In this document: positions 36,402 through 63,840 of the stretch, piece by piece | Numbering within the stretch: position 1 is the first letter of the stretch | Layout of the letters: each line of letters begins with the position of its first letter | Assembly: GCA_012295275.1 (NCBI GenBank) | Contig: CM022672.1 | Location: 33,351,716 to 33,415,715, forward strand | From: Chrysomallon squamiferum | Lineage: Eukaryota > Mollusca > Gastropoda > Neomphalida > Peltospiridae | Length of the DNA: 64,000 nucleotides | Direction: 5' to 3' | Made by a program: the position numbers and the translations under genes | Notes under the pieces: model-generated | Told to the model about the DNA's origin: nothing | What the model saw: the letters and a program-made list of their open reading frames with translations, nothing else | The model's database searches: none

Positions 36402-38081
36402 ATGTTGGTTTTCGCTGTCCTAACGTTTTCTGCGTTTCTTTACACTTCAGATTCTTTCTGTCTGATGGACAGGTTAAAAATCAACATGACAGGTACGTTA
36501 ATCATTTCTGTAGTCCGACATTCAAACCAAGGTGTCTTTACAACAAACGTATGTTATTAGTAGTATAGCTTATCTTCTTTGTCTTCGTTAATTAATTAAT
36601 ATTTATATATATGTCAGCTTGTAAGGAAACTTATGTCTGGTTTTTTTTTTTTTTTTTTTTTTTAGTAAATATCTAGTTAAAACTAGGGAATTTTATGAAT
36701 GTGACATTAAAAACCTGGCTGACAGGTGGAAAGAGGACACCGAGAAGAATCATGACTGTAACATATATTTCATATTACCTGTTTTCAAAAGGGCAGAAAC
36801 GATAAGGTTGAACATTTACTAAAAGGTGCTGTTTGTATATGTTTACTGATGTCAAAAGAAAGTGAATCTACATTTGTTTATTATTGTTAAATAAAAAAAA
36901 AAGAGAAACCAATGATGATTTTATTTGTTTATTGGCGCTAAAAGGTAATGTTTGTATTTGTTTATTATTCGTAAATGTTATCAGCTCGTTTTATTAACAA
37001 TTTAGGCAATTTATATAAATGTATGTGTGTGTGGGTAGTAAAAGATATATATCTATATGTATGTGTGTGTGTATATATATAATATATCCCTCAGCAACAA
37101 ACACGTACAACACACAGACAGTCAAACACGCACGCACACGCACACACACACACACACACACACAAACAAATGCTATCACTTGTATCTAGGACGCGATAAG
37201 AAAGAAAAAAGATTAAATATGTTCTTAGGGAGCAAAGATTAACATAGTTTCAGTCATATTATCATAATATGAGAGTGTACTTAAATTGGACATTTACTAA
37301 ATTATTGCTGTTGTTGTAGGTGACGGACAGATGAAAACGTACTGCCAGTTTGACGGTGTTGTGATGTCACTGGGAGATTCTGTTAAATTCGAGAATAAAT
37401 GTGTAGAGTGTGAATGTTCATATCATGGACTTTCATGTTGCGGGTATGTATTGTCCTGTATTGGTCAAACAAATAAACTCATTTTAAATTTCTAAAAACA
37501 AATGATGATCAAGATAACGAAGATTATGATGATGACGATGATGATGGTCATGATGATGATTCTTATCATTATTATTATTATTATTATTATTATTATTATT
37601 ATTATTATTATTATTATTATTTATTATTATTATTATTATTTAGTTTTATTATTATTATTATATCTTATGTATTCACTATCACCTCGAAGATAAACAGGAC
37701 CAGTCCCATCGTAATGACACTCCCTCTATCAGATGGCAACACCTTCTTGAAAAAAACACACAAAAAAACCAGCCTCCATTCGTTATGGTCTTCATATGAA
37801 ACGTGACCCCTAAAACTACTACTACTACTACTATTATCACCATCATCATCATTATTGTTATTATTATAATAATAATAATAATTATTATTATTATTATTAT
37901 TATTATTGTTGTTGTTGTTGTTGTTGTTGTTGTTGTTATTGTCGATGTACACAGATATGGTATCAGTGCGGGAGTAATTCAACCTCCAAACGGATGCATC
38001 GTCAAAGCAGACGGTTGCAAAGCTCTGCTGGTGAAGGCTGACGATACGTCACGTGACTGCTCGACGGGAGAGTTACTATGA
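36402..38081 (+). CDS. beta-microseminoprotein-like secreted protein (locus 1, complete, type I)
   Basis: Three exons: 36402-36492 (ends phase 1, donor G|GTACGT), 37320-37443 (acceptor ttgtag, donor GG|GTATGT, ends phase 2) and 37955-38081 (acceptor acacag, stop TGA). The product is 113 aa, close to the 114 aa of human MSMB/PSP94. The signal peptide MLVFAVLTFSAFLYTSDS is followed by FC, as SC follows cleavage in the human protein. The mature part has ten cysteines in the beta-MSP order: C, C, then CVECEC, CC, then three single C (GC, GC, DC). Known family role: small secreted disulfide-rich proteins of reproductive secretions; in squid a beta-MSP-like protein on egg capsules triggers male aggression. 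A pheromone or reproductive role here is inference. The second intron holds (ATT)n and (GTT)n. This is the only intact full-length copy in the window. Confidence 0.85.
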
Positions 38082-38126
38082 AAGTGAAAGAACTTTTTCG
38101 TATCTGTAAAACGAAAGTAAAACTGA

Positions 38127-38132
38127 AATAAA
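38127..38132 (+). terminator. poly(A) signal of locus 1
   Basis: AATAAA lies 46 bases after the stop codon, in a stretch (gaaataaaatattttgctagctga) conserved after the last exon of loci 3, 4 and 5. Confidence 0.7.
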
Positions 38133-38149
38133 ATATTTTGCTAGCTGAA

Positions 38150-60640: not shown

Positions 60641-60649
60641 GTGAGAAAG

Positions 60650-60880
60650 AAAGTTTATTATCAATTAGCAACGCCCTATTCATTCTAGTTCATTTCAAAG
60701 TTATTGCTGAATTTCTGTTGTGTTTCTGTCTAGCAATAGCAGTGCAGTCGTCGGTATAGAATAATAATTTATCCTGGACATCTAATGGGATATCGTTCAC
60801 ATTAGATGAAAAAGAATATGCGACCCATGGTGGAAGTAACGTCACCAATTTCTTCCACATCATGTCACTCACGTAAGTAG
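60650..60880 (-). mobile_element. LINE reverse-transcriptase fragment (YTDD region)
   Basis: The minus strand stays open through MMWKKLVTLLPPWVAYSFSS, NVNDIPLDVQDKLLFYTDDC and TAIARQKHNRNSAITLK. It is the best-preserved of three related fragments, with YTDD at the catalytic pair and an NDIP block before it. It is too short to be functional. Confidence 0.75.
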
Positions 60881-63015
60881 GATCGAAACCAGTTTAGTCT
60901 GAATTATTGAGTCTAGAGCTTCTATTATCTGGATCAAAACGCCATGTTCAACCATATCAGAGGCCTGTTACATACCTACATAATTTCCTTTGTTTTGTCC
61001 TAGCTTTCTGTCCTATCATTAATTTTTCCAAAATGGTCTCAGTCAAAAAAGAACGATTGAAAATAGACGATGTTAAGAATCAAAATACATTTTAACAAAA
61101 TAAACAAACATTTTTTTTCTCTATATTTATTTATTACTTAGCACACATTATTATCGATATAATTTACAGTGAAGATAAATAATTAAAGTAGTAAAACGAA
61201 CAATACAAAGAAAAAGAAAAGTAAGTATAATATAATTTTTCTAAATTAAATATTTTAACGACAGTGACAATAAAAGTAAAAATTTAAATTAGCTTAAATG
61301 TTTTCTAATCGATTAGCTACGTTAGTTACGACCTAGTTAGTTACTCATAATCATCGTTATTCAATTTGCAATAACATATTTATTTTTATTATATATCGAA
61401 CATCGATGAAAAAATAAAATATTTTGTTATTGACAGAAGGGAAGTAACTCTAGATAATAAGTAGTTCAAGGAAGCAGACGACTACAATAAGTAAATAAGT
61501 CAATGATTTATATAAACAAAAAATCATAACGTTTAAAAAATAAAAAACAAAAAATTATATAAAAAGTTATATATATATATATATGATATCGAACTCAAGT
61601 AAAAATAAAACATACTGTAAGAATAAGATCTTCGTTAGTAAAGGAGGGGAAGTAACTCTAGTTTATAAGTAGGTGATCGAAGCAGACGATAAAAAAGTAA
61701 ATACGAGATGATCAGAAACATGAAAAACTATTTTACGATAACCCCGTACTCGGTCGCACCATCCAACTGTATTTTAAACTGTCTATACGAGGTAAGTTTT
61801 GACAACTGTTCTATTTAATAAATTCTTTTCTTTTCCTTTCTTTTTTTCTTTTTTTCTTAATGTTACTTAATATGAATATGTTTATGATAATAGTAATAAT
61901 AATAATAATAATAATAATAATAATAATAACAAGTATTATTATTATTATTATTGTTATTGTTATTATTATTATTATTATTATTATTATTATTATTATTATT
62001 ATTATTATTATTATTATTATTATTATTATTATTATTATTATTATTATACCTATTCTCATAATATACACATGTGAAAATTTTCTTTTTACAATCTTAAACA
62101 AGATTCTCCTGAAGCACGTGGTAATGTGGTATTATTATATGAATAGTTTACAATAGTCTTTTGTCTTAGAAAATATTTGTTAGAGTCATCAGTGTTCTAA
62201 CTTTTTATATGTTCAGAGATATAGAAAAGAAATCATTTCTTTTTCTGCAGATTAAATATTAATTCAAATATTAACAAAAACAATTTATAGCCAAGATACT
62301 TCCTCTTCATATGATCCAATACATTTTCTGTATTAGGATATGAAATTAAGTGATTAAATATAATCGAGCATATTGGTTTATTAACCACTGCTTGATTTAA
62401 CCAAGCCAATTTTGTAGTCTACTGACCCATCAGACTGTGTGTGTGTGTGTGTGTGTGTGTATGTGTTTGTCTGTCGGTGTGTGTATGTATTCTTGAGATG
62501 ACTGTGTGAGTGTGTGTCTGTGTGTTGGTGTGTGTGTGTGATTGTGTGTTTGTGTTTGTGTGTCGGTATGTGTATGGATTGTGTATAAAAACACACATCA
62601 AACAAGCACATAAACGTAAAGATGCACATATAAGAATTCAAATATAACACAAACCCATACGTTATACACATTCTATATTAACATATTCACACGGACATAG
62701 AGAAATCCAGAAACGGACATTAAATTAGAAATATACTGTAATTAATGTACTACAAGATATCCTAGCACAAAGCAAGAAAAAAAAAGAGAAATAAGAATAA
62801 TAATAATCCTCTGTTGATTGTTTTTGTTATTCAGTCAGCGGTGTTTGTTTTCTTTTAATTAAGCATTTCACAAAGAAATATGCTATTTTTCTTTGTTTCG
62901 TATTACTAAAAAAAGCAAAAAAAACCCAACAAAACAACAATTATCTACAATAAATGCTTCACAAAATCCGCATCAGCAGTTCAGGAATAGAAAGGTCAGA
63001 GTAAGATCTGAAGAA
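60881..63015. repeat. inverted copy of 42570-44760, upstream region of locus 6
   Basis: Reverse complement of the stretch upstream of locus 2, including the 43790-44734 unit (60900-61810), the (ATT)n/(AAT)n block (about 61895-62046) and the (GT)n region (about 62437-62560). It carries no additional gene. Confidence 0.8.
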
Positions 63016-63840
63016 ATGTTGCTTTTCATTCTGCTATGTGTTTTAAATTCTCTTACAAGTACGGATTCAAGCTGTTTACTTTACAGCCCTAAACCATTCG
63101 TTAAGTAGAACATGATAATTTATATTACTGCAGGTTTTGGAAAATAGGTTCGATAAGTTGCTGATGCTGTTCCATTATTACTACGACCACTACTACTTAT
63201 ACCACTGCAACTATCACCACTGCATCGATAACTACTACTACTACCACTACGGCTACTATTATCCACTACTAGTAAATTGCTACTTCCAATACTTCTAAAC
63301 ATAGATTAATGTTATAATAATAATTGTTATTGTTGTTGCTGCCGATGTTATATATATATATATATATATATATATATATATATATCTTATTATCACCCAA
63401 GTTACTACTACTGCTGGTACTACTATGTCTCCTTTTTTACATGACTGCTACTACTACAGCTACTGCAATGTTCATCTACTTCCTATTAATAGTACTACTG
63501 CTACTACTATTTTCATCTACTTACTATTAATACTACTACTGTTACTACTAACTTCATCACTAACATCATAATTATCATGATCATTATCATTATTACTACT
63601 ACCACTCCTACTACCTCTATAAAACGTCATCATCAACAACATCATTTTTGTCAGTATGATCATGTTAATTTTAATAATGGCGGAATAAACAGTGCATATT
63701 TATATGATTTTATATACAGGTTCTGTGGGTAAACACTGTAAAGATAAAGATGGTAGACAATCAGACGTTGGCGACACGTATAAAGTAGAGGAGAAGTGTA
63801 CAAAGTGCACATGCACTGGTTTTGGCCTCTCATGTTGCGG
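63016..63840 (+). CDS. beta-MSP-like type II, exons 1-2 (locus 6, runs off the window)
   Basis: Exon 1, 63016-63100, is MLLFILLCVLNSLTSTDS then SCLLYSPKPF, the same protein as locus 2. Its splice site reads CATTCG|TTAAGTAG where locus 2 has CATTCG|GTAAGTAG: one G-to-T change removes the original GT, leaving a GT one base earlier that would shift the frame. Exon 2, 63720-63840 (acceptor atacag), is intact: SVGKHCKDKDGRQSDVGDTY and KVEEKCTKCTCTGFGLSCC, then GG|GTTATT. One residue (Lys for Glu) differs from locus 2. A last exon, if present, is expected about 600 bases further on, by analogy with locus 4, beyond the window. Confidence 0.65.

What the first reader, a model, noticed from the sequence alone, without database searches (positions are those of the whole stretch)
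36402..63840. Cluster of at least six beta-MSP/PSP94-like loci plus an orphan exon in one 27-kb region
Seen: seven sets of exons with a shared cysteine plan (C, C, CxxCxC, CC, C, C, C) and identical exon phases (1 then 2), on both strands. Known: beta-microseminoproteins are small secreted reproductive proteins in vertebrates, and a squid beta-MSP-like egg-capsule protein triggers male aggression. Inference: this is a rapidly evolving pheromone or reproductive-protein locus, turning over by duplication, with one intact gene and many damaged or exon-incomplete copies.
Basis: partly seen in the sequence, partly recalled or inferred. Interest (0 to 1): 0.92.

Follow-up and report, generated by a model that had tools for sequence, protein, structure and literature searches.

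The report
Decaying cluster of microseminoprotein-like genes
This stretch of an animal (probably mollusc) genome holds a small family of secreted-protein genes related to the human seminal protein beta-microseminoprotein, copied several times and mostly broken, with one copy that looks whole; such clusters are known in other animals, and the pheromone role is a guess.

Summary
Region 36.4-64 kb carries three A-type loci, three B-type loci and remains of a third type of beta-microseminoprotein-like (MSMB/PSP94) gene on both strands. Locus 1 (exons 36402-36492, 37320-37443, 37955-38081) is the only complete one in the window: 113 codons, ten cysteines, GT-AG introns, phases 1 then 2. Family assignment rests on profile searches: 14 mollusc or brachiopod relatives, six of them annotated beta-microseminoprotein-like, the closest from the gastropod Gigantopelta (52% identity); human MSMB in the PDB (6e-8). 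Direct Pfam scans stay below the PSP94 cut-off. The copies arose from a block repeated in direct and inverted order. Every other locus lacks an exon or carries a lesion. Reproductive or pheromone function and cephalopod origin could not be tested. Clusters of this family are known in opossum and sea cucumber, so this is a new member of a known kind.

The parts
36402..36492 (+). Locus 1 exon A1: signal peptide and first cysteine; ends phase 1, donor GTACGT
   Evidence: only copy of A1 in the window
37320..37443 (+). Locus 1 exon A2: cysteines 2-7; phase 1 in, phase 2 out; donor GTATGT
37955..38081 (+). Locus 1 exon A3: cysteines 8-10 and stop TGA; AATAAA at 38127
42481..42565 (-). Locus 2 exon B1, open, donor GTAAGT
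41746..41866 (-). Locus 2 exon B2, open; weak donor GTTATT; no exon 3 found downstream on this strand
   Evidence: B1B2 of this locus scores 19.3 bits for Pfam PSP94, below the cut-off 22
50194..50317 (-). Locus 3 exon A2, open; no exon 1 found
49499..49624 (-). Locus 3 exon A3, one base shorter than the others: frame lost before the last cysteine
52049..52133 (+). Locus 4 exon B1, open, with a different mature N-terminus from loci 2 and 6
52667..52770 (+). Locus 4 exon B2, 17 nt shorter than in loci 2 and 6: frame lost
53080..53256 (+). Locus 4 intron 2: zone in which B-type similarity (to 53103) gives way to A-type similarity (from 53080, 53224 or 53256, by copy compared)
53376..53502 (+). 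Locus 4 exon 3, A-type; open, but acceptor reads TG in place of AG
57108..57231 (+). Locus 5 exon A2, open
57719..57845 (+). Locus 5 exon A3, open, AATAAA at 57891; no A1 found upstream
63016..63100 (+). Locus 6 exon B1, donor reads TTAAGT where locus 2 has GTAAGT
63720..63840 (+). Locus 6 exon B2, open; exon 3, if any, lies beyond the window
   Evidence: Pfam PSP94 20.2 bits, below the cut-off 22
55226..55337 (+). C-type exon 1: signal-peptide-like, 112 nt, ends phase 1 before GTCAAC; the start position shared by the three stubs reads ACG here, an upstream in-frame ATG is open
55961..56059 (+). C-type exon 2 relic (one cysteine of CxxCxC lost, frame off for phase 1)
   Evidence: weak: (E 0.003)
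56266..56385 (-).
   Evidence: (E 3e-7)
38634..38680 (+). Stub of C exon 1 (5' part) downstream of locus 1
47907..47953 (-). Stub of C exon 1 downstream of locus 3
58352..58398 (+). Stub of C exon 1 downstream of locus 5
36578..64000 (.). Segmental duplication field: 36.6-41.3 kb repeats 56.4-60.8 kb directly; 41.6-50.5 kb repeats 56.9-64.0 kb inverted

Best explanation
A local cluster of genes for small, probably secreted ten-cysteine proteins of the beta-microseminoprotein (MSMB/PSP94) family. Three exons encode each protein: exon 1 the signal peptide and the first cysteine, exon 2 cysteines 2-7 (N-terminal domain), exon 3 cysteines 8-10 (C-terminal domain). A block carrying an A-type and a B-type gene was copied in direct and inverted order, then broken by further recombination and small lesions, leaving one complete A gene (locus 1). 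Because the introns sit in the same phases (1 and 2), crossovers inside introns can exchange whole exons without breaking frame; locus 4 is such a B-B-A product, later inactivated. Shown: anatomy, duplication, lesions, family relation. Inferred: that locus 1 is expressed, secreted and folded like MSMB, the crossover in locus 4, and that the role is in reproduction or at body surfaces (I put a reproductive or egg-coat role at about 0.5).
Confidence: 0.85

Rival explanations
1. Same family, but the role is not reproductive: a mucosal, immune or wound/regeneration protein, as proposed for the sea cucumber PSP94-like cluster.
For: An 11-gene tandem PSP94-like cluster is up-regulated in regenerating gut of the sea cucumber A. 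japonicus (PMC5638244 passages); an MSP-like precursor is expressed, at a low level, in snail nervous system (PMC10036341 passages); MSMB is named among genes that differ between normal and malformed Sepia larvae (PMC5085775 passage).
Against: Squid egg-capsule, mammalian seminal, marsupial egg-coat and starfish testis members are reproductive (PMC4500399, PMC3268785, PMC9759900 passages). None of this concerns the window's own gene.
Confidence: 0.35
2. The whole cluster is dead, locus 1 included.
For: Every locus other than 1 is incomplete or lesioned. Lack of synonymous excess (27 N to 2 S) shows no purifying selection between copies.
Against: Locus 1 has no lesion in start, splice sites, frame, cysteines or stop and keeps AATAAA after the stop; loci 4 and 5 also keep AATAAA, so that signal alone does not mark a live gene.
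Confidence: 0.12
3. Part of the multiplicity is an assembly artefact (haplotype copies placed side by side).
For: The window contains a 200-base gap (12597-12796) and long simple repeats, and two blocks of 7-9 kb match each other piecewise.
Against: Copies differ by 2.6-10.3% in the introns and flanks compared, lie in both orientations, and carry different lesions.
Confidence: 0.08
4. The focal divergence of B exon 1 is a short gene-conversion tract from an unsampled paralogue and not selection on the protein.
For: Differences sit in one 25-nt tract with abrupt edges, surroundings about 3-5%; the region has recombined often.
Against: The tract coincides with the mature N-terminus up to the donor site, and 10 of 11 counted coding changes in the exon are nonsynonymous. 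The exon-1 searches showed no donor copy in the window.
Confidence: 0.45

Closest known systems
Gastropod beta-microseminoprotein-like proteins (Gigantopelta aegis P0004; Haliotis cracherodii P0001; Haliotis rubra P0005)
   Same: Length 114-115, ten-cysteine plan, LSCCG[YF]G motif, hydrophobic N-terminus; identity to locus 1 51-52% for P0004 and 41-44% for the abalones
   Different: Their gene order, exon phases and copy number were not available here
Vertebrate MSMB/PSP94, MSMP, USM and small serum protein 2 (Pfam PF05825)
   Same: Ten cysteines; C-terminal domain on the last exon; MSMP has three coding exons homologous to MSMB exons 2-4 (PMC3268785 passages); PDB profile hits
   Different: Low sequence identity; MSMB itself has a start codon on an extra first exon; direct Pfam score of window proteins below cut-off
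Mollusc MSMB-like sequences, including squid Loligo pealeii beta-MSP contact pheromone and Euprymna scolopes
   Same: Mollusc MSMB-like secreted proteins from bivalves, gastropods and cephalopods are already known (PMC3268785 section 10)
   Different: No Loligo or Euprymna sequence was retrieved, so orthology is untested; the pheromone paper (Cummins et al. 2011) was not seen, only passages citing it
MSMB paralogues in opossum (14 copies) and PSP94-like cluster in sea cucumber (11 copies)
   Same: Local multiplication of family members (PMC3268785 sections 7 and 9; PMC5638244 passages)
   Different: Those are described as tandem; here copies are direct and inverted, mostly broken, with an exon-swapped locus. 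Whether the opossum copies are intact I did not see

Membership tests
MSMB/PSP94 family | Ten cysteines in the order C, C, CxxCxC, CC, C, C, C | tested here: met
   Locus 1. Nine cysteines invariant among 13 relatives; all ten columns invariant or at least 90% with the window rows added
MSMB/PSP94 family | Significant similarity to family members | tested here: met
   Profile search: Haliotis beta-microseminoprotein-like E 5e-19; PDB human MSMB 1.2e-4 from window sequences alone. Single-sequence searches with locus 1 were not significant
MSMB/PSP94 family | Pfam PF05825 gathering score reached directly | tested here: inconclusive
   Cut-off not reached: locus 1 no match; B2 of locus 6 20.2, B1B2 of locus 2 19.3, composite 20.3 bits against 22. 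0 of 9 cysteine-fixed shuffles of B1B2 matched PSP94. Of 3 relatives scanned P0001 24.0 and P0002 23.5 pass, P0003 17.5 does not, so the cut-off also misses a clear relative
MSMB/PSP94 family | Two-domain all-beta fold | tested here: inconclusive
MSMB/PSP94 family | Secreted (signal peptide) | tested here: inconclusive
   Hydrophobic N-terminus on exon 1, but 18% of 787 ATG 20-mers of this window are at least as hydrophobic as A1 and 12% as B1; no signal-peptide predictor was available
MSMB/PSP94 family | Coding exons split as in MSMP, C-terminal domain on the last | tested here: met
   compared with PMC3268785 passages; exon phases of known members were not seen
Squid beta-MSP pheromone | Orthology with the Loligo protein | not testable with these tools
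   No cephalopod sequence among the 14 hits
Squid beta-MSP pheromone | Female reproductive gland expression and male aggression on contact | not testable with these tools
   No expression or behaviour data

The most novel reading that the evidence does not exclude
A modular locus in which phase-matched introns let recombination and splicing recombine signal/N-terminal exons with cysteine-core exons. In particular B1 of locus 4 (open, donor GTAAGT, phase 1) could splice over its damaged neighbours to the open A2 and A3 exons of locus 5, giving a second full ten-cysteine protein with a fast-changing N-terminus, so that broken-looking loci still feed a diversifying signal protein.
Probability: 0.1. 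Interest if true: 0.7.

Novelty: new member of a known kind. Interest (0 to 1): 0.45.

Why it matters
Microseminoproteins are linked both to vertebrate seminal fluid and egg coats and to a behaviour-changing mollusc pheromone, and their function is unsettled. A young cluster with one whole gene, comparable copies, an exon-swapped locus and a focal change at the mature N-terminus gives concrete residues and exons to test for species-specific signalling. If the N-terminal tract varies between species, it would point to an interacting surface.

Tried and rejected
Single-sequence searches failed: locus 1 against the protein collection found nothing, Pfam of locus 1 nothing; only profiles worked. 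I first took the protein collection to be prokaryotic, which was wrong. Rfam and tRNA scans of the window were empty. A retrotransposon-like peptide read from 44.9-45.1 kb had no Pfam match, so I make no claim about a mobile element driving the duplication. Exon trees: exon 2 unresolved, so I use identities and not topology; in exon 3, C joins B only by a long branch. Hydrophobicity as signal-peptide evidence proved weak. In the splice-site table the C-type rows used wrong ends, and B2 rows ran past the donor; one search gives the right ones. Nine literature searches showed no mollusc or cephalopod MSMB cluster among the titles listed, but they cover open-licence papers only and three lists were cut (20 of 108, 20 of 954, 12 of 4,139).
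Full report
What is there. Translated search with exon peptides found the A, B and C exons at the reported place; outside 36-64 kb the best hit was E 0.02. Locus 1 is a complete gene: exons 36402-36492, 37320-37443 and 37955-38081, junctions GT-AG, phases 1 and 2, 113 codons, stop, AATAAA at 38127, 45 nt after the stop. Its mature protein has ten cysteines. Loci 3 and 5 have A-type exons 2 and 3 but no exon 1; locus 3's exon 3 is one base short. Loci 2 and 6 have B-type exons 1 and 2; locus 6's exon 1 donor reads TT, for locus 2 no exon 3 was found on its strand, and for locus 6 the window ends. 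Locus 4 has B1, a B2 that is 17 nt short, and an A-type exon 3 whose acceptor reads TG.

A third type. The 5' part of that exon 1 recurs downstream of all three A loci, and the three stubs end at the same point. So at least seven loci and three stubs are present.

More than chance. The exon-2 cysteine plan occurs 5 times in 36-64 kb against none in 200 dinucleotide shuffles and none in 1-36 kb (the pattern was written after seeing the exons). The core pattern alone averaged 0.005 per shuffle, maximum 1.

Duplication. From 36.5 kb on, 53 of 55 half-kilobase tiles have another copy in the window, and 66 of 76 from 26 kb on, some of the latter from an unrelated repeat. The A half 36.6-41.3 kb repeats 56.4-60.8 kb directly, and 41.6-50.5 kb repeats 56.9-64.0 kb in inverted order, in pieces 87-98% identical. 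The block at 28.2-30.4 kb is a further copy without these exons.

Exon exchange. In locus 4, similarity to the B locus 2 runs to 53103 and similarity to A loci starts at 53080, 53224 or 53256 depending on the copy compared. A and B share 18 of 42 residues in exon 2, about as few as A shares with abalone or Gigantopelta (16-17 of 41), but 36 of 41 in exon 3, where exon 3 for B is that of locus 4. The simplest reading is a crossover inside intron 2, harmless to frame because phases agree. Exon trees were too short to resolve this independently.

Rates. B exon 1 differs at 12 of 85 sites between loci 2 and 4, against 13 of 493 in intron 1 and 20 of 440 upstream (Fisher 1.6e-4). Ten of the twelve lie in the last 25 nt, which encode the mature N-terminus after the first cysteine (10 of 25 against 35 of 993 elsewhere, tract chosen after seeing the data); 0 of 5000 permutations put 10 differences in any 25-nt window. 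Loci 2 and 6 are identical in this exon. For the A exons the picture is weaker: exon 2 differs by 6.5% and exon 3 by 5.5% between loci 1 and 5, within the 3.5-8.0% of introns and flank. Over A2, A3 (loci 1, 4, 5; locus 3 left out for its frame loss), B1 and B2, parsimony gives 27 nonsynonymous and 2 synonymous changes, p 0.003 to 0.02 by assumed transition bias, and 0.016 to 0.054 without B1. Single exon pairs are not significant. This hints at selection for change, or at a short conversion tract for B1. A second intron more conserved than the exons was reported for New World monkey MSMB (PMC3268785 passage).

Function. Secretion and MSMB-like fold are inferred. Squid egg capsule, mammalian semen and marsupial egg coat make a reproductive role plausible (PMC4500399 and PMC3268785 passages); starfish testis expression adds to it (PMC9759900 passages). 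Gut regeneration in sea cucumber (PMC5638244 passages) and snail nervous system (PMC10036341 passages) argue against assuming it. Mollusc MSMB-like genes were already known (PMC3268785 section 10). The taxon is probably a mollusc, from the closest relatives; cephalopod is unproved.

Verdict. It is a new cluster of a known family; exon exchange in locus 4 and the variable mature N-terminus are the most useful leads.

Noticed in passing
window 9496-12594: A 3.1-kb array of about 177 copies of an 18-nt unit (TATACACACTGTCATTTA), next to a 200-base gap at 12597-12796.
   Followed up: partly
window 14125-15723 (-), also 12797-13639 (-): Large open frames; the first matches the Pfam Sacsin domain (3.3e-13), the second, scanned from 12780, nothing.
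   Followed up: partly
window 28200-30440: Another copy (80-96%) of the non-exon part of the duplicated block, without microseminoprotein exons.
   Followed up: partly
window 22256-26038 and 31377-32841: A separate repeat family with copies near 22.4, 23.9, 25.8, 31.5 and 32.5 kb, 82-91% alike.
   Followed up: no
window 55247-55249: The start position shared by three truncated C exon 1 copies reads ACG in the only full-length copy; an upstream in-frame ATG is present.
   Followed up: yes
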